Shown: positions 35,201 to 49,433 of the stretch, in pieces
Layout of the letters: the number at the start of each line of letters is the position of its first letter
Numbering within the stretch: position 1 is the stretch's first letter
Origin: Sphingobium arseniciresistens
Lineage (GTDB): Bacteria; Pseudomonadota; Alphaproteobacteria; Sphingomonadales; Sphingomonadaceae
Assembly: GCA_029167225.1 (NCBI GenBank)
Contig: JARFNK010000017.1
Coordinates: forward strand, 56,350 to 120,349
Direction: 5' to 3'
DNA length: 64,000 nt
Program-made: the position numbers and the translations under genes
Notes under the pieces: generated by a model
Databases searched by the model: none
What the model was told of the DNA's origin: nothing
The model's input: only the letters and a program-made list of their open reading frames with translations

Positions 35201-35787
35201 CGCAGGTCGTGCACGAAGGTCAGTTCGCCGGTAACCTTGGCGGGAATGTCCACGCGCGGCGCGGACCTGCCCACGACCGAATAGCGGCGGGGATCCTTCA
35301 CCGGATGATCGCGGTCCAGCGGCAGGCGGACGCGCTGCCCGGCGAGCAGTTCAGCGAAGGACAAGCCACGGTTGCCGTGCATCACTACCCCATCCTCGAT
35401 GCGCAGTTCGTCAGCCCCCACGTCCAGTCGTCGGGCGGCCATCTCGATCAGCGCGGTGCGCGCCTGCGCCGCGGCGGCGCGCAGCGGGACGGCGGCGGTC
35501 TGGATGGTGTCGCTCGCGATCGTCGCGCCCTGGTTGGGTGCGCGCGCGGTGTCGCCAAGGTACATCCGCACGCCGGCGGGATCGACGTCGAGTTCCTCGG
35601 CTACGATCTGTGCCAGCGCAGTACGGATTCCCGTTCCCAGATCGACATGGCCGTTGAAGCCGTGGACCACTCCTTGCGCATCGACCAGCACGTAGGGAAG
35701 CTCACGCCCATCGTCTTCGCGCTCGCTCACGAGCAGACTGTCGGGCATGCCAATGATCTCGTCGAGGGCAAGGCTCGCCGCGCTCAC
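32251..35787 (-). CDS. nicB: Nicotinate dehydrogenase, molybdopterin/cytochrome c subunit
   Basis: The 1178-residue subunit hydroxylates nicotinate at C6. Residues 1 to about 740 are an isoquinoline-oxidoreductase-like molybdopterin domain, starting with GFNGHVDLGTGIRTALAQIVAEELDV and including the hammerhead part KVTGELTFVHDLRVDGMLHGRVV; GAGESASVP carries the expected catalytic Glu. One membrane helix (about 754-773) follows, then three cytochrome c domains with CxxCH at Cys805, Cys951 and Cys1083. The length matches NicB of Pseudomonas putida. The GTG start overlaps the nicA stop. Electrons should pass from molybdenum through NicA iron-sulfur centres to the haems and the respiratory chain. 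Confidence 0.93.
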   Translation of the reverse strand: MSAASLALDEIIGMPDSLLVSEREDDGRELPYVLVDAQGVVHGFNGHVDLGTGIRTALAQIVAEELDVDPAGVRMYLGDTARAPNQGATIASDTIQTAAVPLRAAAAQARTALIEMAARRLDVGADELRIEDGVVMHGNRGLSFAELLAGQRVRLPLDRDHPVKDPRRYSVVGRSAPRVDIPAKVTGELTFVHDLRVDGMLHGRVVRPPYAGIDGGDFVGTSLIAVDRASIAHLPGIVAIVTQGDFVGVVAQREEIAELAMHLLAVEWKPAPALRDMENLAEAIGASDTRPRYLHEQGDVDAAIADAAMPMDRTYVWPYQMHASIGPSCAVADWQDGFLRVWSGTQNPYPMRADLAGLLDIPVEQVDVVRMEAAGCYGRNCADDVTADAALLARAVGAPVRVQLTREQEHLWEPKGAGQLMQVRGALDEAGEALAYDYSSRYPSNGSPTLALLLTGKVSNQPEMWEMGDRTSVAPYDFPNKRVVIHDTAPIVRASWLRGVSALPNSFAHESWIDEAAAMAGVDAVEYRLRYLTDKRGIAVVEATAERAGWTPHTRPQTVPREGDWLRGRGFAYALYVHSKFPGYGAAWAAWVADVAVNARTGEVRVEKVTVGHDAGLMINPDGVRHQIHGNVVQSASRALVEQVPFDERGVAALEWGNYPLITFPEVPEIDVLMLPQPDEPPLGAGESASVPSAAAIANALYDATGIRFREPPFTPEKVREALAEKGLLLAPEPPAQAPAWTEARPGIGRKWRWNLSGIGAGLAAGMAIAMPWRSALAPAVPPPAGFYSAATIERGRQVAAAGDCAVCHTAPGGKVNAGGRAMETPFGTVYSTNITPDPVHGIGTWSLAAFTRAMREGISRDGRHLYPAFPYTAFAKLTDTDIGALYAYLTSQPAVSHAPPPTRLPFPFNQRAGLALWNAAFHDPRAWQDDPARSPEWNRGAYLVEGVGHCGACHTPRNAAGAEVKGSGRYAGALVDGWWAPALSATHADGVPWSEQDFYEYLRHGQSARHGVAGGPMAPVIAELGSLPDTDLRAMAIYLASLGHGDMTAEWQAAVARQLETRAQERAVGLKGAGARAFEAACAVCHTPGPVPGFGLRPPLATNSAVRAPVPDNLVRTILEGAQSQAFPERGMMPGFARAMSDRQVAQIARYVRARFAPDQPEWTDIERAVAAARLHP

Positions 35788-36287
35788 AGCTTTCCCCCCC
35801 GCGCGAGCGCCTCTACCGCCAGTTCCACGGACCGGACGATCTCCACATGGGTGCCGCAGCGGCAGAGGTTGTGCCGCAGCGCGTCGACGATCGTGGCGCG
35901 GCTGGGCGCGGGATCGTGGCGCAGCAGCGCCTGCGCGGTCATGACCATGCCGTTGAGGCAATAGCCGCACTGGGCCCCCTGCCCTTCAATGAAAGCGCGC
36001 TGCACAAGTCCTGGCGCCTCACGGGTGCCCAATCCCTCCAGCGTCGCGACGCTGCGCCCCTCGACCGCAGCGACGCTCAACGTGCAGGCACGCGCGGCCA
36101 GATCGTCCACCAGCACCGCGCAGGCACCGCACTGGCCGTAGCCGCAGCCGTATTTGGGGCCATTCAGCCCGGCATCGTTGCGCAGAACTTCAAGCAGGCG
36201 CGTGTGCGGCGCCACCTCCAGCGAGAAGGGGGACCCGTTGAGCGTGAACCCGATCGTCCGGGCTGGGGTTGCGTGGGGCGGGTTCAT
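35784..36287 (-). CDS. nicA: Nicotinate dehydrogenase, [2Fe-2S] subunit
   Basis: The 167-residue protein has the two [2Fe-2S] clusters of xanthine-oxidase small subunits: plant-ferredoxin type in YGCGYGQCGACAVLVDD with the later Cys in AARACTLSV, and the helical type in GAQCGYCLNGMVM and NLCRCGTHVEIV. It relays electrons from the NicB molybdenum site. The ATG at 36287 gives MNPPHATPARTIGFTLNG. It lies four bases after the flavin reductase gene and overlaps nicB by four bases. Confidence 0.95.
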   Translation of the reverse strand: MNPPHATPARTIGFTLNGSPFSLEVAPHTRLLEVLRNDAGLNGPKYGCGYGQCGACAVLVDDLAARACTLSVAAVEGRSVATLEGLGTREAPGLVQRAFIEGQGAQCGYCLNGMVMTAQALLRHDPAPSRATIVDALRHNLCRCGTHVEIVRSVELAVEALARGGKL

Positions 36288-36291: not shown

Positions 36292-36936
36292 TCAATCCTG
36301 CGGGATCCGGGGTGGGCGGGACATGGAGAAGAAGCTGGCAGGCATAGCCTCGGCGTACTGGTCGGCATAACCGGCCCGCTGGATGATGCCGGCATGGGTG
36401 GTGTCGAACAGGCCATCGACGAGGTGCATTCGGGCCAGATGGACGCCCACGATCTCGCCGATCACGAGCCAGGCCCCCGCCTCCCGGCCATCATGGCCGC
36501 GCAGCCGGTGCACATCGACCAGCCGGCATTCCAGCGCTGCGGGGCTTGCCGCGACCCGTGGGCAGGACACCGCCGTTCCCGGCAACCGTTCGAGGCCGGC
36601 GGCGGCGAACTCGTCGATCCCTGCGGAATGCATGGCTGCAGTGACGTTCATCGGATCGGCCAGGTCGCGGGTGGCCAGATTGCACGTGAACTCGCCGGTG
36701 GCCTCGGCATTGCGCAAGGTATCCTTGCGCCCGATGCTGGAGAACGCGACCAGCGGCGGCGCGTCGCAGACCATGTTGAAGAAGCTGTAGGGCGCGAGAT
36801 TGGCAGTGCCATCGGCTGCCAGAGTGGAAATCCACCCGATCGGGCGCGGGGCGATCACCGCCTTGAGCGGATCCCGGCGAAGACCGGAGCCTTCGGCGGG
36901 GCGATAGAAGTGAAACGCGCCCGCATACCCGGTCAT
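36292..36936 (-). CDS. Flavin reductase-like FMN-binding protein within the nic operon
   Basis: The 214-residue protein is of the DIM6/NTAB flavin reductase family: RDPLKAVIAPRPIGWISTLAADGTANLAPYSFFNMVCDAPPLVAFSS is the FMN-binding split barrel, and EFTCNLATRDLADPMNVTA follows. Such proteins either reduce FMN for a two-component oxygenase or act on their own substrate. It overlaps the nicF stop by four bases (ATGA) and is four bases from nicA, so it is a full member of the operon. The classical nic clusters I know lack it, and NicC should not need a separate reductase, so its role is open. Confidence 0.85.
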   Translation of the reverse strand: MTGYAGAFHFYRPAEGSGLRRDPLKAVIAPRPIGWISTLAADGTANLAPYSFFNMVCDAPPLVAFSSIGRKDTLRNAEATGEFTCNLATRDLADPMNVTAAMHSAGIDEFAAAGLERLPGTAVSCPRVAASPAALECRLVDVHRLRGHDGREAGAWLVIGEIVGVHLARMHLVDGLFDTTHAGIIQRAGYADQYAEAMPASFFSMSRPPRIPQD

Positions 36937-37550
36937 CGCGCGACGACCCGCAGCAGGTCGTCGAGCATCATCACTTCGGCGTTCTTCTGTCGCATGTCGA
37001 ACAGGTTGGCCTCGTGCGGAGCGATCGCGCGGTCTCCCACGCAGTCCTCCACTACCACAGGGCGCAGGCCATGACACATCGCATCGACCACGCTGGCGCG
37101 CACGCAGCCCGATGTCACGCAGCCCGCGACCACCAGCGTACGCACCTGGCGGGCAGCGTACCAGGCGGCCAGATCAGTGCCGAAGAAGGCCGACGGAACA
37201 GTCTTGCGAACCACATATTCGCCCGCAGCGGGCGCAAGTTCCTCGACGATCTGGCTGCCGTGGCTGTCTTCGGTCAGCGCCAGCAAGCTGGGCACCTTCT
37301 CTGCGAAGATGTTCGCGTTGGCGCCATCGCCGGCGAACACGATCCGCGTGTGGGCAATGGGCCAGCCTGCCTCGCGGGCGTGCGCCAGGAGATTGACGCT
37401 GCGGGCGATAGCGGGGCCGATATTGCCGCCACCAAAAGCGCCCGGATTGGCAAAGCCATTGACGAAGTCGATCAACAGCAGGCCATAGGGCGGCGCGATC
37501 CGCAGCGCGGTGCCGAAGCCCTGCCGGGCGTAGATGTCGGGCGCGCTCAT
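36933..37550 (-). CDS. nicF: Maleamate amidohydrolase
   Basis: The 205-residue isochorismatase-like hydrolase should convert maleamate to maleate and ammonia. The cysteine-hydrolase triad is visible as Asp28 (GLLLIDFVNGF), Lys116 (YVVRKTVPSAFFGT) and Cys149 (VAGCVTSGCVRASVVDA). Length and sequence fit NicF. Isochorismatases as a family have many substrates; the call depends on the surrounding complete nic pathway. Its start overlaps the nicX stop by four bases. Confidence 0.9.
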   Translation of the reverse strand: MSAPDIYARQGFGTALRIAPPYGLLLIDFVNGFANPGAFGGGNIGPAIARSVNLLAHAREAGWPIAHTRIVFAGDGANANIFAEKVPSLLALTEDSHGSQIVEELAPAAGEYVVRKTVPSAFFGTDLAAWYAARQVRTLVVAGCVTSGCVRASVVDAMCHGLRPVVVEDCVGDRAIAPHEANLFDMRQKNAEVMMLDDLLRVVAR

Positions 37551-38590
37551 ACCGAGATCTCCTCGACCAGTCGGCCGTTCTCGACCACCACCGTCTGGTC
37601 GAGCTTCACGGTGCAGTGTCGCAGCGGTATGTCAATGTGGCACGCGGTGTTGCGCTCGCCGCCGACCTCAGTGTTGGGGCCCAGCGAGAACAGGAAGTTG
37701 CCGGCGAAGGCACGCGCGTCCATGGCTATGGTCTGCTCCTTGTCGTACAGCCCCATGGTCGACCAGCGCGCCCGCTTCTGAAGGCCCCAGCCGATGTGCG
37801 AGATGGCATAGCCTTCCGGGTCGCCGAAGCCTTCCATGTAGTCGCTGAGCAGATCGGCATCGAGCCCGCCCCCGATGCGCGTAACGTACCCCTTCTCCAC
37901 CGTCAGCGTGATCGGGGCGGAGGCATAGGACTTCTGGGGCAGCAGGATGTCGCCTCGGTCGATGACGATCGTGCCTGAGGTTGCGTGCTCGTTCGGCCAG
38001 GTCAGCACGAAGCCGGAGGGCCAGTGGTCCCAGCGCCCGCGTTCGTCGACGAAACCATATTCGAGGACGGCGGGGTACTGCCCTAAAGGACAGGTCAGGT
38101 CAGTGCCCGCCGCCGAGGTCACGCGCATCGTCGAGGACCGTTCGATCAGTCGCGCGCCGGCCTGGACCGCGCTGCGATCGTCGAGCGTGGGGACCATGCG
38201 GGCCAGCACTTCCGGCGGCTCGACCGCGAGAAGGATGCTGGTGCCAGATTCGAGGATTTCGGCCTGTTCGGGGGAGAACAGCAGCAGCATGAGATCGAGC
38301 ACCAGGTCGCTGGCCTTGCACATCTCCATCGCAGCGCGATTTCCGGTGAGCGGCGTCGTCCCGACGTAGGCCAGCGGATCGCGGCTGTGCGACAGCGCGC
38401 CGTTCACCGGCAGCATGTCGAGCCGGTTGACGAACGCACCAGCGGCCTGCGCGGCCTGGATCGCGCAGCGCAGGGTCTGCGGATGCGTGAGCGGCCCGGT
38501 GAGGATGGTCACGCTTTGCCCCGGCGCAAGACGGCTCAGTTCAAGCACCCGGCGCCAGGCGCCGGTCAATTCGTAGTCGCTGATGGGCAC
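37547..38590 (-). CDS. nicX: 2,5-dihydroxypyridine 5,6-dioxygenase
   Basis: The 347-residue non-haem iron enzyme opens the pyridine ring to N-formylmaleamate. The family iron ligands, which I recall as His265, His318 and Asp320 in Pseudomonas putida, are found at exactly these positions here: His265 in AISHIGWGLQ, His318 and Asp320 in ACHIDIPL. This makes the call firm. The start is GTG, supported by GAAGGAG eight bases upstream. It is the first gene of the reverse operon nicX-nicF-flavin reductase-nicA-nicB and diverges from nicE across 134 bases. Confidence 0.95.
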   Translation of the reverse strand: MPISDYELTGAWRRVLELSRLAPGQSVTILTGPLTHPQTLRCAIQAAQAAGAFVNRLDMLPVNGALSHSRDPLAYVGTTPLTGNRAAMEMCKASDLVLDLMLLLFSPEQAEILESGTSILLAVEPPEVLARMVPTLDDRSAVQAGARLIERSSTMRVTSAAGTDLTCPLGQYPAVLEYGFVDERGRWDHWPSGFVLTWPNEHATSGTIVIDRGDILLPQKSYASAPITLTVEKGYVTRIGGGLDADLLSDYMEGFGDPEGYAISHIGWGLQKRARWSTMGLYDKEQTIAMDARAFAGNFLFSLGPNTEVGGERNTACHIDIPLRHCTVKLDQTVVVENGRLVEEISV

Positions 38591-38639: not shown

Positions 38640-38657
38640 ATTTGTATGTTTACAAAT
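38640..38657. promoter_or_regulatory. Perfect inverted repeat in the nicX-nicE divergent promoter region, candidate NicR operator
   Basis: ATTTGTA (38640-38646), spacer TGTT, TACAAAT (38651-38657): a perfect 7-bp inverted repeat, AT-rich in a GC-rich background, of the size bound by MarR dimers. It lies 50 bases from the nicX start and 67 from the nicE start, so one bound dimer could control both operons. The binding protein is inferred from the neighbouring marR-type gene. Confidence 0.6.
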
Positions 38658-39488: not shown

Positions 39489-40289
39489 ATGGACAGCAGA
39501 TACCTGGGCGGCTTCCACGTTCACGCCAACGGCATCCGCCAGCACATCCTGCGCTATGGGGGCGCGGGAACGCCGCTGCTGCTGGTGCCCGGCATCACCA
39601 GCCCGGCGATCACCTGGGGCTTCGTCGCCGAGGAACTCGCCGCCACCCATGACGTCCACGTGCTCGACGTCCGCGGACGTGGGCTGTCGCAGTCGGGCTC
39701 GCAGATCGACTACCGGCTTGATGCCTGCGCGAGCGACGTCAACGCCGTCGCCGAGGTCCTGGGCTGGAACGACGCGGCGCTAATGGGGCACTCGATGGGA
39801 GCGCGTCACGCGATCCGCGCCTGCCGCATCGACGGCTCGCGCTTCGGCCGCGTGGTGCTGGTGGATCCGCCCATGTCAGGGCCGGGCCGCCGCCCCTACC
39901 CTTCGAAGCTGCCCTGGTACATCGATTCCATGGCGCTCGCCCGGCATGGCGCTGACCTGGAGACGCTGCGCGCCTTCACGCCGACCTGGACTGACGAGCA
40001 GATCGCCCTGCGCGCGCAGTGGCTGCACACCTGCGACCAGGCCGCGATCCTGTCGTCCTTCGCGAGCTTCCACGACGACGACGTTCACGCTGATCTGCCG
40101 GCACTGAGGCAACCTGCCCTGCTCGTCTCCGCCGAACATGGCGACGTGGTGCGCGACGTGGATGCAGATGAGTGCATCGCGCTCGCTCCGGCGCTCTCGC
40201 ATGTGCGCGTTCTCGATGCCGGACACATGATCCCTTGGGACAATCTCCCAGGCTTCCTTGCCGCAGTGCGGCCCTTTCTCGCGGCCTGA
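39489..40289 (+). CDS. nicD: N-formylmaleamate deformylase
   Basis: The 266-residue alpha/beta hydrolase should cleave N-formylmaleamate to formate and maleamate. The triad is Ser102 (MGHSMGARHA), Asp126 (VLVDPPMSG) and His246 (DAGHMIPWDN), each one residue from the Ser101, Asp125 and His245 I recall for NicD. The oxyanion region VPGITSPAITWGF is present. GAGGAAAC precedes the ATG. It is 11 bases after nicE in the forward operon. Confidence 0.93.
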   Translation: MDSRYLGGFHVHANGIRQHILRYGGAGTPLLLVPGITSPAITWGFVAEELAATHDVHVLDVRGRGLSQSGSQIDYRLDACASDVNAVAEVLGWNDAALMGHSMGARHAIRACRIDGSRFGRVVLVDPPMSGPGRRPYPSKLPWYIDSMALARHGADLETLRAFTPTWTDEQIALRAQWLHTCDQAAILSSFASFHDDDVHADLPALRQPALLVSAEHGDVVRDVDADECIALAPALSHVRVLDAGHMIPWDNLPGFLAAVRPFLAA

Positions 40290-40322: not shown

Positions 40323-41465
40323 TTGAAACAGACTGAAATCGCGATCGTGGGCGCGGGACTGGGCGGCCTCGCGGCTGGCCTGGCACTGCTCAAGCGCGGC
40401 TACGACGTCCACGTCTATGAGCAGGCGGAGACCTTTTCCCGCACCGGCGCGGGCATCCAGCTCGGGCCCAACGTGCTCAAAATCATGCGCCACCTCGGCC
40501 TGGAAGCGGCAGTCGAGGCGATGGGCTTCAAGCCCGACGCCTGGCTGAGCTACAGCGAGGAGGCCGAGTTGCTGGCCGACATCCCCCTCAACCGCCGCCG
40601 CCAGGACTATGGCGCCGCCTACGTCACCATTCACCGCGGCGACTTCCACGCCGTCCTCGTCGATCACTTCCCCGCCGACCGGCTGCACTTCGGCTGCCGC
40701 CTAGTCGGCCTGACGCAGGACGCGGACGGGGCGACGCTGTCGTTCGCGGATGGCGAGCCGATACGTACGCGGCTGGTGGTCGGCGCCGACGGAGTCAACT
40801 CCGCGGTGCGCGAGGCACTGCTGGGGGCCGAAGCGCCGCTTTACACCGGCTATGTCGGGCACCGCGCCATCTTCCCCGCCGAACGGTTCAGGCAAAGCGG
40901 CTTCGAGTTCCTTGGCAACGAGAAATGGTGGTCCAAGGACCGGCACTTCGTGGTCTACTTCCTCGACGACGCGGCCAAGGAGATGTACTTCGTCACCGGC
41001 GCACCCGAGGCGGAATGGAACCACGGCGCCTCGTTCGCGCCCTGCACCAAGGAGGAATTGCGCGAGGCGTTCGCGGACTATCACCCCAAGGTCCAAGCGA
41101 TGATCGACGCTGCCGGGGAAATCACCAAGTGGCCGCTGCTGACGCGGCCGCCGCTTGCCCTGTGGAGTGAAGGCCGGGTGGTGCTGCTCGGCGATGCCTG
41201 CCATCCCATGAAGCCGCACATGGCGCAGGGCGCGGCCATGGCGATCGAGGATTCGGCGATGCTCGACCGCTGCCTTGCCGAAGTCGGCGGCCTCGACGGC
41301 TTCGCCGCCGGCTTCGCACTTTACGAGGCGAACCGCCGCGAGCGCGCCTCGCGGGTGCAGGCCACTTCCAACGCCAACACTTGGCTGCGTACGCAAGAGG
41401 ACCCCGACTGGGTCTACGGCTACGACGTCTTCACCGTGCCGCTGGTCGAAGCGCAGCCGGCCTGA
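40323..41465 (+). CDS. nicC: 6-hydroxynicotinate 3-monooxygenase
   Basis: The 380-residue FAD enzyme decarboxylates and hydroxylates 6-hydroxynicotinate to 2,5-dihydroxypyridine using NADH and oxygen. The Rossmann motif IVGAGLGGLAAGLALL is at residues 8-23, TRLVVGADGVNSAVRE is the DG motif, and VVLLGDACHPMKPHMAQGAAMAIED the GD motif. The start is TTG, with GGAGA upstream. The active-site stretch reads GAGIQLGPN; I recall a histidine (His47) in the Pseudomonas enzyme where Gln46 stands here. DRHFVVYF with His208 probably matches the second active-site histidine. Confidence 0.92.
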   Translation: MKQTEIAIVGAGLGGLAAGLALLKRGYDVHVYEQAETFSRTGAGIQLGPNVLKIMRHLGLEAAVEAMGFKPDAWLSYSEEAELLADIPLNRRRQDYGAAYVTIHRGDFHAVLVDHFPADRLHFGCRLVGLTQDADGATLSFADGEPIRTRLVVGADGVNSAVREALLGAEAPLYTGYVGHRAIFPAERFRQSGFEFLGNEKWWSKDRHFVVYFLDDAAKEMYFVTGAPEAEWNHGASFAPCTKEELREAFADYHPKVQAMIDAAGEITKWPLLTRPPLALWSEGRVVLLGDACHPMKPHMAQGAAMAIEDSAMLDRCLAEVGGLDGFAAGFALYEANRRERASRVQATSNANTWLRTQEDPDWVYGYDVFTVPLVEAQPA

Positions 41466-41584: not shown

Positions 41585-42091
41585 ATGTCAGCCACCAACC
41601 GATCATCGCACCAGAGCGCGGGCAAGGCGAATGCGGTGAACGCCGCAGCACAGCCGGCAACCGTCGAGCATCTGCCCGGCGATTACCGCATCGATCAACA
41701 GATCGGCCTCTTCATCCGCCGCGCGCACCAGCGGGCGAGCGCCATCTTCGCCGGCCATTTCAGCGCCTCCGGACTCAGTCCGCTCCAGTTCACCGCACTG
41801 GTGAAGGTCCGCGACGAAGGCCGGGTCTCGCAAAACCATCTGGGCCGGCTCGTCCATGCGGACCCGGCGACGATCATGGGCGTGGTCAACCGCCTGTCCA
41901 ATCGCGGACTCCTGCGCCGGCTGCCGGATTCGAACGACCGGCGGCGGACACAGCTGGCGATCACCTCGGACGGCCTGCGTCTGATCGAGGACCTGGAAGC
42001 GGCCGGCCATGCGGTGACGCGCGAGACGCTTTCCCCCCTCGATCCCGGCGAACAAGCCGAACTGTACCGTTTGCTGGACAAGATTGTCTGA
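41585..42091 (+). CDS. nicR: MarR family regulator of nicotinate catabolism
   Basis: The 168-residue protein has the MarR winged-helix plan: dimer helix RIDQQIGLFIRRAHQRASAIF, recognition region VSQNHLGRLVHADPATIMGVVNRLSNRGLLRR, and the wing LPDSNDRRRTQLAIT. By position and family it matches NicR, the repressor of nic genes whose known effector is 6-hydroxynicotinate. The likely operator is at 38640-38657. A weaker inverted repeat TGCGTC/GACGCA at 41557-41579 just before its start could serve autoregulation. It converges on the AraC gene, four bases apart. Confidence 0.88.
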   Translation: MSATNRSSHQSAGKANAVNAAAQPATVEHLPGDYRIDQQIGLFIRRAHQRASAIFAGHFSASGLSPLQFTALVKVRDEGRVSQNHLGRLVHADPATIMGVVNRLSNRGLLRRLPDSNDRRRTQLAITSDGLRLIEDLEAAGHAVTRETLSPLDPGEQAELYRLLDKIV

Positions 42092-42095
42092 CCGC

Positions 42096-43091
42096 TCAAT
42101 GAAGCGCGGCCGTGCCAGAGTGAAGGGCGCAGACCGTGACAAGGTCCGGACTGGCCGACATGTCCGTCAATTCGCGCAGGAACATGTCATTGTCACGCGC
42201 CAGTTCGAGCAGCAGAGGGCGATAAGTGCTGAGCAACGGGGCCTCGACCGGCGCCTCGGCGGTGTTCCGCCGCTGGCGGTATTCGAGGGGTGTACAGCCG
42301 AACCGCTCACGGAACTTGGCATAGAAATGGCTGCCACTGGAAAACCCCTCGTCAAGCGCGATGTCGAGGATGCTGAGGTCGCTGTCGCGCAGTTGCTCGA
42401 CGGTTCGGTCAAGCCGCAGGTTCTGCGCATAGTCGCGAAAGCACAGACCGGAGTGGCGGCGGAACATGCGCGAAAGGTGCGTCACCGACAGCCGCTCGCG
42501 CTTGGCGAAATAGTCGAGCGACAGCCGCGCGTCCTTGATGTCCCGCATCTCGCGCATGATCCGCATGATCACCGATGATCCGCTGCCCTGCCCGACCGGC
42601 ATCTGCCGCCGTTCCTCGAACGGGACATGCTTGTGGATGTGATAGCAGAGCAGTCCGGCCAGGCAGTTGCGCAGCATCGTATCCTCCGGTTTTCCCGTCG
42701 AGAGAAGCAGGCGCGCGATGGACGCGCGCATGGGGACGATGACGTCATCGTAGAAGTGGCGGGCGGACAGGAAGCTCTTGCACAAGAAATAGCGCCCGGC
42801 GAACCCGGTCAGGCCCTGCCGCTCGGCGTGGCTCGCATCGATGTGAACGCCGCACATGATGGTGTCGCGATCCTGGCTGATCGAGTTGTGCGGGCTCTGG
42901 GCATTGATGATCATCAGATCGCCGGCGCATAGCTCGCACTCCTGCCCGTCCACGATCATCCGTGCGCGACCGCGCACGACCATCAGCACCTCCATGTGCT
43001 CATGCCAGTGGAACGGCGCCTGCAGCGCCCCATGCACGAAAGGGCGCACCCCGCCATCAAGCGCGCCGAGGTCCTCGAATCCGTAGTCCAT
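42096..43091 (-). CDS. AraC family transcriptional regulator with cupin sensor domain
   Basis: The 331-residue protein has an AraC-type cupin at residues about 20-110 (FHWHEHMEVLMVVRGRARM, then CAGDLMIINAQSPHNS) and a C-terminal double helix-turn-helix (LSLDYFAKRERLSVTHLSRMFRRHSG, LDIALDEGFSSGSHFYAKFRERFGCTPLEYRQ). This arrangement is common among regulators of sugar use. GGGGAAG eight bases before the ATG at 43091 supports the start. It lies downstream of the TonB receptor, GPH symporter and GH3 genes on the same strand and probably controls them. Confidence 0.9.
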   Translation of the reverse strand: MDYGFEDLGALDGGVRPFVHGALQAPFHWHEHMEVLMVVRGRARMIVDGQECELCAGDLMIINAQSPHNSISQDRDTIMCGVHIDASHAERQGLTGFAGRYFLCKSFLSARHFYDDVIVPMRASIARLLLSTGKPEDTMLRNCLAGLLCYHIHKHVPFEERRQMPVGQGSGSSVIMRIMREMRDIKDARLSLDYFAKRERLSVTHLSRMFRRHSGLCFRDYAQNLRLDRTVEQLRDSDLSILDIALDEGFSSGSHFYAKFRERFGCTPLEYRQRRNTAEAPVEAPLLSTYRPLLLELARDNDMFLRELTDMSASPDLVTVCALHSGTAALH

Positions 43092-43348
43092 CAACCGCTT
43101 CCCCGAGTATTTTTGTTTGCCTACGTGCGAATGTGCATCATTGTCGCCGTAATGCAATTGTCATTTTTGCCCGTCAGCGGAACAGGTGCATGCAAAAAAG
43201 GCGGGACACCGCGAAGTGTCCCGCCAAGAGTCAGCCGTCGAGCTGTTGGCTCCGGCCGCCGCGCCGCACCGTTGGGCATGCAGGCGACGGCCAGGGCCGT
43301 GATCCGGCGGGGCGGGAGGAGATCGCGTCCCGCCGGATCGGAGGGAGG

Positions 43349-45529
43349 TCAGAAGGTGACCGAGAAGCGCGCGCCGTAAGTGCGCGGTGCCGCGAACTGG
43401 TACAGCCAGTTGCCCGTGAAGTTGGGCGTAGCGGCGGTCAGGATGCGTTTGTTTTCCAGGTTGCGACCGAAGACCGAGAAACGCACCGAGCTGCCGTCCG
43501 GAGCATAGCTCAGCACAACGTCGGTCCGGGTGTAGGCTTCCTGCACGTCGGGTGCGTAGTTGTAGATCGACAGGTGCGACGCGCTCTGGAACTGGGTCTG
43601 GACACGCGCGTTCAGTTTGCCGCCGAACACGGTGAAGTCGTGTTCCAGCCCCGAGTTGATGCTGATCGCAGGCGACTGCACCGGACGGTTGCCCGCCAAC
43701 TGCGCATTGCCGTTGCCATCGGTGGAGGCCACGAAGTTGGTGCGGACAAGGAAGTCCTCGAACTTGGCGTTGAGCCATGCGACCGACGCGGTGAAGCGGG
43801 TGACCGAATCGATGGCGAAGGTCGTTTCCAGTTCGGCACCGTACATGCGCGACCGGCCGGCGTTGGCGACCAGCAGTTGGTTGTCGATGAACTGCGAGAT
43901 CTGCTGGCCCTGGTACTTGTAGTAGAAGGCCGAGATGTTCGCCTGGATCCGATTGCCTGCGAAGCGGTTCTTCGAGCCGATCTCCCACGCCTTGATCGTT
44001 TCGGGATCGTACGGCGCCACTTCGGTGAAGCCCCCCGCCTTATAGCCGGTATCGAACTTGGCGTAGACCATATTCGTGGGCGTCAACTGGTAGTTGGCAC
44101 CCAAATGATAGGTGACCTTTCCGAAGCTGGCATGGCTGTTCTGCGGCGAGGTGCCAGTGATGACCAGCTCGCCGCTCGCCTCGGTAGCAGCGGGATCGAC
44201 GCTGACGACCTGACCCAGGCGCGTCTTGGTGTCTTTGGTGTAGCGGATTCCGGCTTCCAGCTTGAAGTCGGGGAGCACTTCATAGCCGAACTGCGCGAAG
44301 GCGGCCTTGGACGTCGTCTGGATCTTGAACCCAGGCTGCGAGTAGTAGTCGTAGAGCTCATCGGGGGCGTAATCGTACGGGCCTTCGGTGAAGGCGCTGT
44401 CGAGGTGCTCCAATTCCTTGAAGTAGAACACGCCCAGCTGATAGGTGAACGGCTGGGTGGCCGCCGAAACCAGGCGCAGTTCGTGGTTGGTGGTCCAGAT
44501 CTGCGAGTTCTGCGGGAAGCCGTAGCCCGGTTCGGCGGTGCCTTCATAGTCCTCGTCATGGTCGACGTGGGCGTGGCGGAAGGCGCCCGTATAGGTCAAG
44601 CTGGCCGGTCCGAAGTCATAGCTGATCGTACCGCGCACAGCCTGCACGTCGATGTTGTTGAAGCCCTTCTTGTCCAGATCCCAGGCATTGCTGCTGGGGA
44701 TGTTGGACTTGACGTCCGCCATGTAGCCATCGGGCGTGCGCGTGAACGGTACGCCAAGACGCACGGGGCCGATGCCGCGCTGGCGGACCACCTCGCCGGT
44801 GAGCGTGGCGCTGAGCGCGCTGGTGGGATCGAACTGCAGCGACAGGCGGCCGGCCAGCACGTCCTCGTCGTCACCGCGCCCGGCGGTCCCATTGTCGGTA
44901 TAGCCCTCGTGGTAGGAGCGCAGGCCGGCAGCGCGCACCGCCAGCGTGTCGGTCACGGGCAGGTTGATCATCGCCTCGAAACGCTGCGAATCGTAGTTGC
45001 CGGCTTCGGCCGATGCCGAGGCGGCGAACGCGTGCACCGGCTTGGCGGTGACGATGTTGATCGCCCCGCCCGTCGCGTTGCGGCCGTAAAGCGTGCCTTG
45101 CGGGCCGCGCAGGACTTCGACGCGGGAAATGTCGAACATGCTGGCGTTCAGGGTGACCGCGCGCTGGATGTAAGCACCGTCGATGTTGATCGCGACGGCC
45201 GGATCGCCGATCTCCGAATAGTCACGGCTGGACACGCCGCGAATGGCGATCAACGTGGAGTTGGCATTCGTGCTCAGGTTCAGGCCGGGCGCGATCTTCG
45301 ACAGCTCGGCGACATTGCCGGTGCCGGACTTGAGCAGGTCGTCCCCGGTCAGCACCGAGACGGCGACGGCGGCCTTCTGCAGCGGCTCGGGACGCTTGTT
45401 GGCGGTCACGACGATGTCGCCCAATCCTTCCTGGGCGGCCGGGACCGGCTCGCTCTCGGCCTGGGCATAGGCGGTTGTGCAATAAAGCAGGGGCAGCAGC
45501 GCTGCGATTGCCTTGCGCGATAGCTTCAT
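43349..45529 (-). CDS. TonB-dependent receptor (catabolic type)
   Basis: The 726-residue protein has a signal peptide (IAALLPLLYCTTAYAQA), the TonB box-like GDIVVTANKRPEPLQKAA, the plug (ISRVEVLRGPQGTLYGRNATGGAINIVTAKP) and a 22-strand-type barrel ending in YGARFSVTF. Receptors of this subclass in sphingomonads often take up plant compounds or oligosaccharides rather than siderophores. It is downstream of the GPH symporter and GH3 genes, separated from them by 157 bases that hold an inverted repeat. Confidence 0.93.
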   Translation of the reverse strand: MKLSRKAIAALLPLLYCTTAYAQAESEPVPAAQEGLGDIVVTANKRPEPLQKAAVAVSVLTGDDLLKSGTGNVAELSKIAPGLNLSTNANSTLIAIRGVSSRDYSEIGDPAVAINIDGAYIQRAVTLNASMFDISRVEVLRGPQGTLYGRNATGGAINIVTAKPVHAFAASASAEAGNYDSQRFEAMINLPVTDTLAVRAAGLRSYHEGYTDNGTAGRGDDEDVLAGRLSLQFDPTSALSATLTGEVVRQRGIGPVRLGVPFTRTPDGYMADVKSNIPSSNAWDLDKKGFNNIDVQAVRGTISYDFGPASLTYTGAFRHAHVDHDEDYEGTAEPGYGFPQNSQIWTTNHELRLVSAATQPFTYQLGVFYFKELEHLDSAFTEGPYDYAPDELYDYYSQPGFKIQTTSKAAFAQFGYEVLPDFKLEAGIRYTKDTKTRLGQVVSVDPAATEASGELVITGTSPQNSHASFGKVTYHLGANYQLTPTNMVYAKFDTGYKAGGFTEVAPYDPETIKAWEIGSKNRFAGNRIQANISAFYYKYQGQQISQFIDNQLLVANAGRSRMYGAELETTFAIDSVTRFTASVAWLNAKFEDFLVRTNFVASTDGNGNAQLAGNRPVQSPAISINSGLEHDFTVFGGKLNARVQTQFQSASHLSIYNYAPDVQEAYTRTDVVLSYAPDGSSVRFSVFGRNLENKRILTAATPNFTGNWLYQFAAPRTYGARFSVTF

Positions 45530-45597
45530 CTTGGAACTCCCCGTGATGTCTGCCGGTCACCTCGGCGCCCGACTTGCATTTCCGTTTTCAGACGGCG

Positions 45598-45640
45598 GTA
45601 CACTAATCCCTCTGCACCACCTGAAATCACGTTAGTGTAC
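45598..45640. promoter_or_regulatory. Inverted repeat upstream of the TonB receptor gene, candidate operator
   Basis: GTACACTAA (45598-45606) and TTAGTGTAC (45632-45640) form a perfect 9-bp inverted repeat with a 25-base spacer, 69-111 bases upstream of the receptor start. Each arm has a GTAC core. The spacing suits two bound subunits or a DNA loop; the AraC protein at 42096 is the nearest candidate. Confidence 0.5.
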
Positions 45641-45686
45641 ATATGAATTTGCGAAAGAGGCGCTCTTGCTCGTTCATCGCGTCAGT

Positions 45687-47042
45687 TTATGCCGCGCGCA
45701 GGCCGCCGGCCTTGCAGTCCTCGATCTCGGCGTCGCGCGGGTAGGCGAAGGTCGCCAAACCCGAGAGGATCAGCAGCGCGGCCGGTAGCAGCGCCAGGCC
45801 GAGCCGGATCGCCAGTATCGCACTGTCCGGCTGGACCGCCGCGCCGGCCTGATAGCCCGAATGCGCAAGGAGCGCGGCCAGCAGAGCCCCGCCCACGCCG
45901 GCCGCCACCTTGTAGGCGGCCGAAGCGATGGCATAGCCCAATCCCATGGCGTCCACGCCGGTACGCGCCACGCCATAGTCCAGCGTATCGGACAGCATCG
46001 CGTAGGTGACGGGATCGCGCATGCCGATCATCAGCCCGATTCCGGCCAGCAGCGCGATAATGCCCACAGGGTGCGCGGGTACCACGGCAAGCCCGAGGAA
46101 CATGCAGGCTTGCGCGAAGTTCGTGATCCGCACCGAAGCGCGGCTGCCCAGCAGGCGGACGAGCGCCGGCGCGATCCAGCAGCCGATGAAGCTGGCGGCA
46201 GTAATCGTCGCAATCATGGTGCCACCGAAGGCCGCGCCGAACCGGTATTCATAGATCGCTGCAAAGGTCACGCTGCCCAGCGAAAGCGTGTTGGCGGTGC
46301 TGTTGAGGAACTTGATGGCGGTCAGCACGAGCCAGGGTCGGTTGGCCATCAGCGCGCGGGCCAAGCCGCGCCGCCCGGGCGCGGCGACCTGCGCGGTCGC
46401 CGGCCTTACGGTCTCGCGGCAAAAGCGATGAGTCACCAGGAACGCCAGCGCGACCACCACGCCGATAATGCTCATGAACAGCAGGAAGCCCTCGCGCGAA
46501 TCGCCTGCGCCGAGCCAGCCCACCGCCGTCAGCGTGATCCAGCCGATCAGTACCGAACCCACATTCGCGCCGATCAGGCGTGCCGAGGTGAGCTGGATGC
46601 GCTGTGCGGTCGATGCCGTCATCAGGTTCGTCAGCATGCCGTAGGCGGTGTTGACGAAGCTGTAGGTCACGCTCAACAGCATGAACGTGCCCGCCGCCCA
46701 CAGCACCTTGAACAGGTGCGAGCCTTCCAACGGCAGGAACACCAGTGCGGTGGTCACGGCCAAGGGCAGCGCCCCCCACTTCAGGAACGGACGCGCGCGT
46801 TCACCGTGGGCATGGCGCTTGTCTATGGCGATGCCGATCAGCGGGTCGATGGCGGCATTGGCGATGCGGCAGAACAGCAGGATCCCCGCCACCGACGCGG
46901 CCGGGATGCGATAGATGTCCGTGTAGAAGAAAACGATGTAGGTGAGCGTAGTCGCCCAGATCAGGTTGGAGGCGAAATCGCCCAGCCCGTAAGCGGCTTT
47001 TTCCCTGATACCGAGCGTGCCCGGCGATGCCTGCGTGGCCAT
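45687..47042 (-). CDS. GPH family glycoside:cation symporter
   Basis: The 451-residue protein has 12 hydrophobic segments and starts with REKAAYGLGDFASNLIWATTLTYIVFFYTDIY, the signature of glycoside-pentoside-hexuronide symporters (MelB/XynB type). The loop DPLIGIAIDKRHAHGERARPFLKWGALPL is the conserved DxxxGxxxDR(T) motif region. It imports sugars or glycosides with H+ or Na+. It starts 12 bases after the GH3 stop and shares its transcript. Confidence 0.93.
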   Translation of the reverse strand: MATQASPGTLGIREKAAYGLGDFASNLIWATTLTYIVFFYTDIYRIPAASVAGILLFCRIANAAIDPLIGIAIDKRHAHGERARPFLKWGALPLAVTTALVFLPLEGSHLFKVLWAAGTFMLLSVTYSFVNTAYGMLTNLMTASTAQRIQLTSARLIGANVGSVLIGWITLTAVGWLGAGDSREGFLLFMSIIGVVVALAFLVTHRFCRETVRPATAQVAAPGRRGLARALMANRPWLVLTAIKFLNSTANTLSLGSVTFAAIYEYRFGAAFGGTMIATITAASFIGCWIAPALVRLLGSRASVRITNFAQACMFLGLAVVPAHPVGIIALLAGIGLMIGMRDPVTYAMLSDTLDYGVARTGVDAMGLGYAIASAAYKVAAGVGGALLAALLAHSGYQAGAAVQPDSAILAIRLGLALLPAALLILSGLATFAYPRDAEIEDCKAGGLRAA

Positions 47043-47054
47043 GGCGCTTTCTCC

Positions 47055-49421
47055 TTAGTGCCGGGTGGCGCCGGCCGCGTCTGCGGCGACGGCGACGTCC
47101 ATGGTGGACAGCTGATCCAGAAAACTGCGGAGTTCCTCGGGCGGCAGACGATCGCCGATGAACCAGCAGATTGTCTTGTGGATGCCCAGGAACGAGGTGG
47201 AGCAGCGATCGAGCAAGGCATCGGCAGCGACCACCCCGATGCCGAGGCGATCGGCGAGGAACGCAGCCAACGCCTCGCGCACACCGGGCCAGTCGAACAG
47301 GACGGCCGGCTGGGTGTCGATGTCGAAGCGCGGCGGCGGCGCGGGATCAGGCACGGTGACAAGCGATGCCGCCAGGCGGATGTCGCGACTCGACGCACCC
47401 ACCTCGATGGTCGTGGTGCCGTCGTCGAGCTGCCACTTGCCGAGCGCAGGATCGTAATACGCCAAATCCCTGCCGCTGACCGGAATCGTGATCCGGCGGG
47501 TTTCGCCTTTGCGCAGGAAAACCTTGGCAAATCCCTTCAGTTCGCGCGGCGGCCGGCGCAGGCGCGAACCATTGGGCCGCGCATAGAGCTGTACCGTCTC
47601 GGCACCGTCGCACGGACCGGTGTTGATCACCGAAAGCGAAACCGCCAGAACGTCGTCCATGCCCAGCGACTGGCGGTCGAGCGCGAGACCGTCATAGGCG
47701 AAGCTCGTGTAGCTCAGCCCGAACCCGAATGGATACAGCGGCTCGATTGCCCTGGCATCATACCCGCGATAGCCCACGAAGATGCCCTCACCATAGTCGT
47801 GGCGGCCGTTCTCACCCGGGTAACTGAGCCAGCCGGGAACGTCCTCGACCCGGCGCGGGAACGTGGTGGTGAGCTTGCCGCCGGGATTGGCGGCGCCGAA
47901 CAGCGTTCGCGCTACGGCATGGCCCATCCCCTGCCCGGCATAGAAGGTCATGAGGATCGCGCCCACTTCCGGCTCCCACGGCATCACCACTGCATCCGGC
48001 GCGGCGAGCACGATCACGCAATTGGCGTTGGCGCCGGCCAACGCGGCAATCGCTTCGGCCTGGCCAGGCTCCAGTTCCAGATTGCGCCGGTCGGCCCGTT
48101 CGCCATCGCCGCTGATCTCGCTGTTGGCGAACACGATCACGGCGTCGGCGGCGCGCGCCTCGTCCAGCATTTGGGCAAAGCCGGCAGGGTCGGTCGCCTC
48201 GCGATGAACGATCGACACATCCGGCCCGGCAATGGCACGAATCTCGTCCAGCGGGATATCGCGGGCCGTGGGGTGGGTCGTGGCCGATCCGGATCCCTGG
48301 ATGATCGGGTTGATCGCCCCTGCGCCGACGACGAGCAGCCGCTTGTGCCGCGCAGGATCGAGCGGGAGCAGGGATTTCCGGTTCTTGAGCAGCACGAGCG
48401 ACTGCGCCGCGATGCGTCGGGCCAGCTCATGATGCGCCGGGGCGTCGTAGCGCGCGCCACGATCCTCACCGGCACGCGCCTGGCGCACCAGGCGAAGCAT
48501 CCGCATGCAACTGGCGTCCACATCGACCATGTCCACCCGGCCCTCGGCAATGGCCTGGAGCAGTTCGGCCCGCCGCACGCTGCTTTCAGGCATGTCGAGG
48601 TCGTTTCCGGCCGACATCGAGGCGGCACGGTCCTTGATGCCGTGCCAGTCGGAGACGACCACGCCCTCATATCCCCACTCGCCGCGCAGCACATCGGTCA
48701 GCAGCCAGCGGTGCTCGGCGGCCTGGACCCCGTTGATGCGGTTGTAGGCGCTCATCACCGTCCATGGCCGGCCGCCGGCAATGGCCCGCTCGAAGCCCTT
48801 GAGATAGATTTCCCGCAGCGCCCGCTCGCTCACCTCGCTGCTCATGGTGGTGCGTTCGATTTCCGAGTTGTTGCAGGCGAAATGCTTGAGCGAGGCGCCG
48901 ACGCCGTTGTCCTGAAGCCCGGTGATCAGCGCTGCGGCAAGGTCGCCCGACAGCACCGGATCCTCGGAGTAATATTCGTACGACCGACCTTGCAGTGGAG
49001 TGCGGCGGATGTTGATGCCCGGACCAAGCAACAGATGGACACCCAGACTGCGACACTCGCGCGCCAGCGCGGCGCCGAACTCGCGGGCCAGATCCATGTC
49101 CCACGAACAAGCGAAGGCAGAACCGTTGGGAAAGCAGGTAGCAGGCACGGAATCGCCCAGCATGGCATCCGCGTCGTTCGTCTGATTCACGACCTCCATG
49201 AACTGAGCCAGGCTGTCACGCTCGTCGGTAACGCCTTCCACCTGGGACGGCGAATAGCGCACGCCATGCGTGCCGTCGGTCATGACCAGTTCGGGAATGT
49301 TCAGCCGGAAGTTCATGGCCGTCTTCCACAGATGGCGACCGTTGAGCAGCGCCACCTTCTCTTCCAGCGTCATTTGCGCATGCAGGGCTTCCAGGTTGCT
49401 ATCGGTCACATTCCAGGGCAT
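47055..49421 (-). CDS. Glycoside hydrolase family 3 beta-glycosidase
   Basis: The 788-residue enzyme has the GH3 N-terminal barrel (TLEEKVALLNG, GPGINIRRTPLQGRSYEYYSEDP, SLKHFACNN) with the nucleophile Asp in GVVVSDWHG (about residue 255), the second alpha/beta domain (LVLLKNRKSLLPLDP) and a C-terminal fibronectin-III-like domain. There is no signal peptide, so it should act in the cytoplasm after import by the GPH symporter. ATG at 49421 is preferred; a TTG at 49433 lies in frame. GH3 enzymes cleave beta-glucosides or beta-xylosides; the aglycone cannot be read from sequence. Confidence 0.94.
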   Translation of the reverse strand: MPWNVTDSNLEALHAQMTLEEKVALLNGRHLWKTAMNFRLNIPELVMTDGTHGVRYSPSQVEGVTDERDSLAQFMEVVNQTNDADAMLGDSVPATCFPNGSAFACSWDMDLAREFGAALARECRSLGVHLLLGPGINIRRTPLQGRSYEYYSEDPVLSGDLAAALITGLQDNGVGASLKHFACNNSEIERTTMSSEVSERALREIYLKGFERAIAGGRPWTVMSAYNRINGVQAAEHRWLLTDVLRGEWGYEGVVVSDWHGIKDRAASMSAGNDLDMPESSVRRAELLQAIAEGRVDMVDVDASCMRMLRLVRQARAGEDRGARYDAPAHHELARRIAAQSLVLLKNRKSLLPLDPARHKRLLVVGAGAINPIIQGSGSATTHPTARDIPLDEIRAIAGPDVSIVHREATDPAGFAQMLDEARAADAVIVFANSEISGDGERADRRNLELEPGQAEAIAALAGANANCVIVLAAPDAVVMPWEPEVGAILMTFYAGQGMGHAVARTLFGAANPGGKLTTTFPRRVEDVPGWLSYPGENGRHDYGEGIFVGYRGYDARAIEPLYPFGFGLSYTSFAYDGLALDRQSLGMDDVLAVSLSVINTGPCDGAETVQLYARPNGSRLRRPPRELKGFAKVFLRKGETRRITIPVSGRDLAYYDPALGKWQLDDGTTTIEVGASSRDIRLAASLVTVPDPAPPPRFDIDTQPAVLFDWPGVREALAAFLADRLGIGVVAADALLDRCSTSFLGIHKTICWFIGDRLPPEELRSFLDQLSTMDVAVAADAAGATRH

Positions 49422-49433
49422 TTTCCAGTTCAA

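What the first reader, a model, noticed from the sequence alone, without database searches (positions are those of the whole stretch)
43349..49421. Glycosidase, sugar symporter and TonB receptor attached to a nicotinate degradation cluster: a possible nicotinate-glycoside pathway
Right behind the nic genes, tail to tail with nicR, lies a group made of an AraC regulator, a TonB receptor, a GPH symporter and a GH3 beta-glycosidase without signal peptide. The nicotinate importer NicT and porin NicP known from Pseudomonas are missing. Together this suggests that the natural substrate is a glycosylated pyridine, taken up through the receptor and symporter, cleaved in the cytoplasm by GH3, with the aglycone nicotinate entering NicAB. 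Plants do store nicotinate as glucosides. The alternative is two unrelated catabolic units transferred side by side.
Basis: partly seen in the sequence, partly recalled or inferred. Interest (0 to 1): 0.8.

Follow-up and report, generated by a model that had tools for sequence, protein, structure and literature searches.

The report
Bacterial gene block for nicotinate glycosides
A sugar-splitting enzyme with its own uptake genes sits with a complete vitamin B3 (nicotinate) breakdown pathway in soil bacteria of two groups, apparently joined to it separately in each, which suggests that these bacteria feed on the sugar-bound nicotinate that plant roots release.

Summary
Observation confirmed: AraC, TonB receptor, GPH symporter and a GH3 without signal peptide (42096-49421, minus strand) end 4 nt behind nicR of a complete nicB-A-F-X|E-D-C-R cluster. 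Co-location is not confined to this strain. The 17-kb block, and nothing around it, recurs in Sphingobium sp. Sx8-8; all parts recur, rearranged, in Sphingomonas oleivorans. A palindrome with one genome-wide site here (nicX|nicE promoter) has its only S. oleivorans site, a perfect one, before araC-GH3-GPH-TonB. In 22 of 23 rhizobial genomes whose GH3 (about 53% identical) follows a NicR-like MarR gene, it ends one contiguous cluster of nicX-F-E-D-C|A-B, a GH106-like gene and an ABC importer; 0 of 25 genomes with other GH3 types have that cluster. NicX, NicB and NicC trees each reject one clade of GH3-linked clusters (p-AU 5e-47, 6e-6, 0.02), so two joinings are the simplest history. Arabidopsis makes nicotinate N-glycosides and releases them (PMC6776627). 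Best reading: nicotinate glycosides are imported intact, cleaved by GH3 in the cytoplasm, and the nicotinate enters NicAB. No activity was measured; sugar and linkage are open. Ten literature searches listed nothing similar.

The parts
32251..35787 (-). nicB, nicotinate dehydrogenase large subunit (molybdopterin plus cytochrome c); ORF open to 35970, true start near the end of nicA
   Evidence: 81% identical in Sphingobium Sx8-8 and 66% in S. oleivorans; 56% to rhizobial nicB
35784..36287 (-). nicA, 2Fe-2S subunit
   Evidence: Pfam Fer2 and Fer2_2
36292..36936 (-). flavin reductase-like protein
   Evidence: Pfam PF01613
36933..37550 (-). nicF, maleamate amidohydrolase (isochorismatase-type hydrolase)
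   Evidence: 42% to rhizobial nicF
37547..38590 (-). nicX, 2,5-dihydroxypyridine dioxygenase
   Evidence: 7cn3, E 5e-122; 90% Sx8-8, 79% S. oleivorans, 70-71% Caballeronia
38640..38657 (.). palindrome ATTTGTATGTTTACAAAT, candidate NicR operator in the nicX|nicE promoter
   Evidence: only place with up to 2 mismatches to TTTGTATGCATACAAA in this genome
38725..39477 (+). nicE, maleate isomerase (Asp/Glu racemase superfamily); TTG start behind aaggag
   Evidence: 76% to rhizobial nicE
39489..40289 (+). nicD, N-formylmaleamate deformylase (alpha/beta hydrolase)
40323..41465 (+). nicC, 6-hydroxynicotinate 3-monooxygenase (FAD)
   Evidence: 51% to rhizobial nicC
41585..42091 (+). nicR, MarR-type regulator
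   Evidence: stretch DPATIMGV kept in all three sphingomonad NicR
42096..43091 (-). AraC-type regulator with cupin domain
   Evidence: 83% Sx8-8, 64% S. oleivorans; 39-46% relatives beside GH3 in rhizobia and others
43111..43128 (-). degenerate palindrome before araC, at the place of the perfect site of S. oleivorans
   Evidence: 5 mismatches over 16 bases, weak on its own
43349..45529 (-). TonB-dependent receptor, signal peptide by eye
   Evidence: Pfam plug and barrel; 86% Sx8-8, 67% S. oleivorans
45687..47042 (-). GPH-family sugar/cation symporter
   Evidence: TIGR00792 above cut-off; 84% Sx8-8, 70% S. oleivorans
47055..49421 (-). GH3 glycosidase without signal peptide by eye; motifs TDG, KHF, SAYNR, SDW, GDGER
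   Evidence: 81% Sx8-8, 68% S. oleivorans

Best explanation
The block is one catabolic unit for a glycoside of nicotinate. The TonB receptor takes the glycoside across the outer membrane and the GPH symporter across the inner one. The cytoplasmic GH3 enzyme frees the sugar, and the nicotinate goes through NicAB, NicC, NicX, NicD, NicF and NicE to fumarate. AraC and the NicR-type regulator switch the glycoside and nic operons. Shown: gene content, conserved linkage in sphingomonads and in rhizobia, trees that favour two joinings of GH3 to nic clusters, and a shared operator sequence between species. Inferred: order of steps, substrate, regulation. Most likely substrates are the nicotinate N-glycosides (glucoside, xyloside, arabinoside) that plant roots make and release.
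For: (1) The block 32288-49421 alone is conserved between this genome and Sphingobium Sx8-8 at 77-80% DNA identity in both halves; S. oleivorans keeps all parts at about 70-73% although order and orientation differ. (2) A GH3 at least 60% identical was found in 3 genomes, this one included, and all 3 have nic genes within 20 kb. (3) Palindrome TTTGTATGCATACAAA with up to 2 mismatches: 1 place in the window's genome (nicX|nicE), 1 in S. oleivorans (before araC-GH3, 0 mismatches), 3 in Sx8-8 (nicX|nicE and two elsewhere); reversed control 0; a simple base model expects 0.07-0.12 per genome. (4) Rhizobia: 22 of 23 genomes whose GH3 follows a NicR-like MarR gene have a contiguous nicX-F-E-D-C|A-B ... 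importer ... MarR-GH3 cluster (annotated examples); 0 of 25 genomes with other GH3 types do. (5) Trees of NicX, NicB and NicC each reject one clade of GH3-linked clusters, p-AU 5e-47, 6e-6 and 0.02; the GH3 tree rejects one clade of nic-linked GH3, p-AU 0.003. (6) The rhizobial clusters add a GH106-like protein. (7) PMC6776627 (passages and one section) reports nicotinate N-glucoside, O-glucoside, N-pentoside and a tentative N-rhamnoside in Arabidopsis, with conjugates found in the medium.
Against: No activity or expression data. GH3's nearest solved relatives are beta-glucosidases and its best NCBIfam model, an alpha-L-arabinopyranosidase, is far below cut-off, so specificity is unknown. The sphingomonad set has only 3 genomes. 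The window has no clear palindrome before GH3 itself, and homology ends at its start codon. S. oleivorans has a different palindrome in its nicX|nicE gap, and in rhizobia the nic and glycoside operons have different palindromes, so joint control is not shown within one genome. Many close GH3 relatives, with an AraC neighbour and sugar ABC genes, have no nic cluster, so this GH3 subfamily is not nicotinate-specific. One early joining with later losses is not excluded by the trees. The plant beta-glucosidase tested in PMC13184244 (passages) cleaved nicotine N-glucoside but not nicotinate N-glucoside.
Confidence: 0.7

Rival explanations
1. The glycoside's aglycone is another pyridine or an ester-linked nicotinate, for example a hydroxypyridine glycoside entering at NicC or NicX, or a nicotinoyl sugar ester, with GH3 only trimming sugars.
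For: The rhizobial clusters carry three glycosidase-like genes and an amidase-like cysteine hydrolase, more than a simple glucoside needs. Enzymes of the NicX, NicD, NicF, NicE type also serve nicotine breakdown (ndp genes of S. xenophagum).
Against: nicA and nicB, which act on nicotinate itself, are present in the three sphingomonad blocks and in all 22 rhizobial clusters fetched.
Confidence: 0.14
2. Two unrelated catabolic units, nicotinate use and a plant beta-glucoside or xyloside use locus, share one mobile block because both pay off near roots.
For: AraC-GH3 loci without a nic cluster are common in rhizobia. Six nicB-containing clusters examined have no GH3 nearby (L123, L124, L126, L182-L184). 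The block sits in different surroundings in the genomes compared, as mobile units do.
Against: The linkage survives rearrangement in S. oleivorans, recurs in rhizobia with other partners, and one rare operator is shared across species.
Confidence: 0.12
3. The glycoside genes feed on an ordinary plant sugar glycoside, and the nicotinate regulator merely uses pyridines as a sign that a root is near.
For: NicR-like regulators occur beside GH3 with a palindrome of their own in rhizobia.
Against: It does not explain why full nic pathways, not just the regulator, are linked in 22 rhizobial genomes.
Confidence: 0.04

Closest known systems
Nicotinate degradation (nic) cluster of Pseudomonas putida (gene names and layout recalled; NicX structure 7cn3)
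   Same: Complete nicA, B, C, D, E, F, X, R set; NicX matches the solved dihydroxypyridine dioxygenase at E 5e-122
   Different: No importer gene of the NicT or NicP type found in the block; instead GH3, GPH symporter, TonB receptor and AraC are attached
salCAB operon of Azospirillum irakense for salicin (PMC1790865, passages)
   Same: TonB receptor gene in an operon for using a plant aryl glycoside; the receptor was proposed to take the glycoside up
   Different: Repressed by a LacI-type regulator according to a reference title there; aglycone is not a pyridine; no linked aglycone pathway mentioned in the passages seen
Carbohydrate utilization loci with TonB receptors (CUT loci) of Xanthomonas and relatives (PMC1790865, passages)
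   Same: TonB receptor, transporter, carbohydrate enzymes and regulator together (partly recalled)
   Different: Those loci serve plant carbohydrates; here the unit is tied to a pyridine pathway
Rhizobial nic-GH3 clusters (found here; no publication seen in the ten searches)
   Same: Complete nic set plus a GH3 about 53% identical, without signal peptide by eye in the one N-terminus printed
   Different: ABC importer whose binding protein is PotD-like instead of TonB/GPH; extra GH106-like and GH63/GH37-like proteins and a cysteine hydrolase; NicX, NicB and NicC on other branches
Tobacco nicotine glucoside hydrolase NicGH (PMC13184244, passages)
   Same: A beta-glucosidase that removes glucose from a pyridine N-glucoside
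   Different: Plant enzyme in nicotine biosynthesis; reported not to accept nicotinate N-glucoside

Membership tests
nic nicotinate catabolic cluster | nicA plus nicB nicotinate dehydrogenase (2Fe-2S; molybdopterin with cytochrome c) | tested here: met
   same architecture in rhizobial nicB
nic nicotinate catabolic cluster | nicC, nicX, nicD, nicF, nicE for ring hydroxylation, ring opening and fumarate formation | tested here: met
nic nicotinate catabolic cluster | MarR-type regulator NicR in the cluster | tested here: met
nic nicotinate catabolic cluster | Dedicated nicotinate importer or porin (NicT, NicP) | tested here: not met
   None recognised in 32251-49421 apart from the GPH symporter and TonB receptor; an MFS gene is present in the S. 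oleivorans cluster
Glycoside hydrolase family 3 | GH3 N and C domains | tested here: met
   Pfam 140.9 and 167.2 bits, Fn3-like 81.9 bits
Glycoside hydrolase family 3 | Catalytic Asp (SDW) and acid/base Glu (GDGER) | tested here: met
   Aligned with solved beta-glucosidases; positions 258 and 441 counted from the ATG at 49421; the roles are recalled
Glycoside hydrolase family 3 | Activity on beta-glucosides, xylosides or arabinosides | not testable with these tools
   No assay
TonB-dependent carbohydrate utilization (CUT) locus | TonB receptor with inner-membrane sugar transporter, glycosidase and regulator together | tested here: met
   conserved in Sx8-8 and S. oleivorans
salCAB-type aryl glucoside operon | LacI-type repressor SalR | tested here: not met
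   AraC and MarR regulators instead

The most novel reading that the evidence does not exclude
These loci are the bacterial counterpart of plant nicotinate N-glycosylation: root bacteria of two orders have built, probably independently, clusters that import the N-glycosides secreted by roots and break the bond between sugar and pyridine nitrogen. GH3 would take the N-glucoside and N-pentosides, and in rhizobia a GH106-like enzyme the N-rhamnoside. That would be a sugar-nitrogen bond cleavage not reported, in the papers seen here, for these glycosidase families.
Probability: 0.38. Interest if true: 0.85.

Novelty: new variant of a known kind. Interest (0 to 1): 0.74.

Why it matters
Plants turn nicotinate into N- and O-glycosides, and in Arabidopsis these are found in the growth medium (PMC6776627, passages and one section), but in the papers seen here I found no organism shown to consume them. 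If the reading is right, these clusters name the consumers, give candidate enzymes for sugar-nitrogen cleavage on pyridines, and explain why this nic cluster has glycoside-type uptake genes. They would also be a marker for a nutritional link between roots and their bacteria, testable with a handful of enzymes and gene deletions.

Tried and rejected
Mobile-island ends: direct repeats in 31700-50200 gave only short chance-like matches. A tRNA-Ser lies at 31743-31833 just before the block, but no attachment repeat or integrase was shown and the empty site was not looked at. Part of the left flank matches many genomes of the genus (61 genomes).

NicR ligand: BpsR's four 6-hydroxynicotinate residues (PMC6837509, passages) are only half kept in the window's NicR (Tyr and Arg yes, two His no; my reading of the alignment). 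That paper says P. putida NicR does not keep them either, so nothing was concluded.

Rhizobial operator: a first scan suggested that rhizobia carry the same operator. A closer look shows a shorter palindrome, ATTTGTATACAAAT, before their glycoside operon and a different one, AAGCGTATACGCTT, between nicC and nicA in many of the 22. I dropped the claim of one shared operator in rhizobia.

Residues: three positions (Met87, Ala225, Ser379) are shared by both nic-linked GH3 lineages where at least 80% of 57 others have one other residue; control pairs gave 1 and 1. At 70% it was 4 against 7 and 1, and with another looser rule 7 against 13 and 12. Not used as evidence.

Independence of the two joinings: I first leaned on the NicX tree. 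On checking, the clusters beside the window's NicX (Caballeronia, Azospirillum) show no nicA or nicB in the stretches fetched and only a 35-37% nicC, so they are not full nicotinate clusters and NicX may have moved alone.

GH3 structure prediction was given up after two alignment calls failed on coordinates. A predicted structure would not settle the aglycone. The GH106-like call rests on a model with mean pLDDT 61 and weak profile hits (E 0.022 and 0.0022).
Full report
What is there. The window (contig C30 of genome G000; the genus group that holds G000 also holds G491, whose GH3 place and identity fit the Sphingobium sp. Sx8-8 genome) carries a complete nicotinate cluster: nicB, nicA, a flavin reductase-like gene, nicF and nicX on the minus strand, nicE, nicD, nicC and nicR on the plus strand. 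Four nucleotides behind nicR, tail to tail, ends an AraC-type gene, followed towards higher coordinates by a TonB receptor, a GPH symporter and a GH3 glycosidase, all on the minus strand. GH3 starts at ATG 49421 and shows no signal peptide by eye. The catalytic motifs match solved beta-glucosidases (residue roles recalled). The best NCBIfam model is an exo-alpha-L-arabinopyranosidase at 614.7 bits against a cut-off of 1300, so the sugar cannot be named from sequence.

Conservation within sphingomonads. In 61 genomes of relatives the best-scoring other GH3 match is 38% identical. In 397 genomes of the family, 3 pass E 1e-120: the own genome, G106 (68%) and G087 (55%). In 94 genomes of the genus 4 pass: own, G491 (81%) and two at 44%. 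In the collection of 84,980 species, 526 stretches encode a relative; of the best 76 loci kept, only two exceed 60%: Sphingobium Sx8-8 (81%) and Sphingomonas oleivorans (68%). All three genomes with a GH3 at least 60% identical, this one included, carry the nic genes within 20 kb. Between the window and Sx8-8 the DNA match begins at 32288 and ends at 49421 and nothing else in the compared stretches matches. In S. oleivorans the module is turned around relative to nic, araC is first in the operon, and an MFS gene and a second TonB receptor lie in between. G087, with the 55% GH3, has its nicX-like gene more than 1.5 Mb away on the same contig. Twelve stretches around nicX-like genes (10 other genomes and two further loci of the own genome) hold no GH3 (two were cut short by contig ends).

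A shared operator. The nicX|nicE gap of the window holds ATTTGTATGTTTACAAAT, and Sx8-8 a similar site. The promoter of araC-GH3-GPH-TonB in S. oleivorans holds the perfect palindrome AATTTGTATGCATACAAATT. Searching three whole genomes for TTTGTATGCATACAAA with up to 2 mismatches gave one place in the window's genome (the nicX|nicE gap), one in S. oleivorans (the araC-GH3 promoter, no mismatch) and three in Sx8-8 (the nicX|nicE gap and two places on another contig); the reversed control gave none. A simple base model expects 0.07-0.12 per genome. The window and Sx8-8 have only a degenerate version (5 mismatches) at the matching place before araC, which alone would not stand out (seventh-best score in the window). 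The NicR stretch DPATIMGV is identical in the three species. That NicR is the binder is inferred. In S. oleivorans the nicX|nicE gap carries another palindrome (ATCATATGTACGCATATGAT), so its own nic operon is not tied in by the same site.

The rhizobial clusters. The next GH3 relatives (49-56%) come mostly from rhizobia. In 23 of the 76 loci a MarR gene 39-44% identical to nicR lies directly before GH3. Annotated plasmids show why: in R. tumorigenes 1078, R. leguminosarum Ta9k and Rhizobium sp. CCGE532 the order is MarR - nicX (named leucyl aminopeptidase) - nicF - nicE - nicD - nicC, divergent from nicA - nicB - an 895-aa protein - a GH63/GH37-like protein - ABC importer - cysteine hydrolase - MarR - GH3 (the 895-aa gene is not listed in the R. 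leguminosarum table, and CCGE532 has one small extra ORF; the stretch of R. tumorigenes 932 ends inside the second MarR gene). I searched 50 of the 76 genomes for the rhizobial nicX: 22 of the 23 MarR-type genomes have it, the exception being the R. rhizogenes genome of L069. I fetched 20 kb beside nicX in each of the 22; all 22 contain the whole series from nicF to GH3 in the same order. Of 25 genomes with other GH3 types, 18 have no nicX-like match at E 1e-40 and none has the cluster: G540 has a lone 33-39% nicX-like gene about 17 kb from GH3 and G551 a lone 46% one about 40 kb away, each on a contig of the same length as the GH3 contig and without other nic genes in the stretches read; in the other five the match is far from GH3 by its coordinates or contig length. 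A Fisher test of 22/23 against 0/25 gives 8e-13, but the rows are related, so it is not a true probability. The remaining 26 loci were only scanned with window proteins in their short flanks (one partial nicB-like hit, L090), which would miss a cluster 15 kb away.

One joining or two. A careful tree of 22 NicX proteins puts the sphingomonad GH3-linked NicX beside Caballeronia and Azospirillum, and the rhizobial GH3-linked NicX with Agrobacterium vitis, Roseomonas, Pseudosulfitobacter, Paracoccus and a sphingomonad; one clade is rejected, p-AU 5e-47. The Caballeronia and Azospirillum clusters, however, show no nicA or nicB in the stretches and only a 35-37% nicC, so NicX may have moved on its own there. 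Trees of NicB (14 proteins) and NicC (16) also reject one GH3-linked clade, p-AU 6e-6 and 0.02, with Roseomonas (no GH3) beside the rhizobial NicB. A careful tree of 37 GH3 proteins rejects one clade for the nic-linked GH3 (p-AU 0.003), because two AraC-type GH3 without the MarR gene sit with the rhizobial ones; one of these genomes was searched and has no nicX (G546), the other was not. Two joinings are the simplest history; one early joining with losses is not excluded. Either way GH3 and nic have stayed together in two orders.

Clusters without GH3. No GH3 was found at E 1e-5 with two GH3 queries in the eight plasmid stretches around other nicX genes, in the S. xenophagum ndp stretch, in the twelve sphingomonad stretches, or in six further stretches (27 in all). 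Of the eight plasmid clusters three have nicB (Roseomonas, A. vitis, Pseudosulfitobacter), four do not (Caballeronia 2, Azospirillum 2), and the Paracoccus record starts 2.3 kb before nicX. Importers annotated near them: MFS, branched-chain-type ABC, other ABC, a sodium:solute symporter. Three sphingomonad stretches with nicB (L123, L124, L126) also lack GH3. So nicotinate clusters without GH3 exist, and GH3 is an addition to some.

Substrate. What the two versions share is nicotinate breakdown plus a GH3 without signal peptide plus an importer for larger or charged solutes (GPH and TonB receptor, or an ABC system with a PotD-like binding protein). PMC6776627 (passages and section 11) reports nicotinate N-glucoside, O-glucoside, N-pentoside (xylose or arabinose) and a tentative N-rhamnoside in Arabidopsis roots, and that all nicotinate conjugates except methyl nicotinate are found in the liquid medium. 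Glucose, xylose and arabinose are usual sugars of GH3 (established knowledge). The 895-aa protein that follows nicB in rhizobia has no Pfam match, a weak rhamnosidase jelly-roll match (E 0.0022), and its predicted structure (Shinella version, residues about 96-895, mean pLDDT 61) finds 6q2f, a Novosphingobium rhamnosidase, and 5mwk, BT_0986, first (E 6e-20 and 7e-14; that both belong to GH106 is recalled). That would fit the rhamnoside, but the model is poor. PMC13184244 (passages) shows that a plant beta-glucosidase can cleave nicotine N-glucoside and that nicotinate N-glucoside occurs in tobacco; that enzyme does not accept nicotinate N-glucoside. A PotD-like binding protein would suit a positively charged pyridinium glycoside; this is speculation.

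Limits. No enzyme, transport or expression data exist here. The AraC-type GH3 relatives next to sugar ABC importers show that the subfamily as a whole is not nicotinate-specific. The window's genome is a draft with 6% estimated contamination.

Literature. Ten searches of the held open-access library listed no paper whose title or abstract start describes a bacterial nicotinate-glycoside pathway or a GH3 gene in a nic cluster. Most papers were seen as listings only; PMC6837509, PMC6776627, PMC1790865 and PMC13184244 were read in passages, plus one section of PMC6776627. Most subscription papers are not in the library.

Verdict. The conserved linkage in two orders and the shared operator go well beyond what two neighbouring units would give. 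The substrate remains to be proved.

Noticed in passing
L122 (G000:C33:453000-472999) and L123 (G000:C51:19000-38999): The window's genome has two further nicX-like loci (52% and 43-49% identical), one with nicC- and nicF-like genes and one with nicB- and nicC-like genes, so this strain may degrade several pyridines.
   Followed up: partly
window 36933-41465: The nic block looks like a mosaic: nicX and nicF are closest to Caballeronia and Azospirillum (62-71%), while nicC is only 35-37% identical to theirs and 50-58% to alphaproteobacterial nicotinate clusters.
   Followed up: partly
L176-L179, L182-L185: NicX relatives on many alphaproteobacterial plasmids are annotated as leucyl aminopeptidase although they sit among nic genes; probable misannotation.
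   Followed up: partly
L100:20-3835 (S. oleivorans): An MFS gene and a second TonB receptor sit between nicR and the glycoside operon; the palindrome ATCATATG-4 nt-CATATGAT and a near copy occur in the nicX|nicE gap and before this receptor, perhaps a second regulator's site.
   Followed up: partly
window 31743-31833: tRNA-Ser directly before the block, a possible insertion point; no attachment repeat or integrase was shown.
   Followed up: partly
L143:309-629 (Sx8-8, just before GH3): By eye, the end of an IS5-like transposase and then an htpG-like gene precede GH3 in Sx8-8; the window has only degenerate sequence there, so the GH3 promoters differ.
   Followed up: partly
window 50000-54600: Stretch of low GC (about 56-57% against 65%) with a GGDEF gene and TadE/Tad-like pilus genes.
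   Followed up: no
L186-L207: Rhizobial clusters carry two different palindromes: AAGCGTATACGCTT or close between nicC and nicA in many, and ATTTGTATACAAAT-like sites before the ABC-MarR-GH3 operon; 11 of 26 loci had two such sites about 200 bp apart.
   Followed up: partly
L026, L028, L031, L032, L038: Mesorhizobium-type loci with two GH3 genes of this subfamily (in L026 around a sugar ABC importer), beside an AraC relative and without a nic cluster found; substrate unknown.
   Followed up: partly
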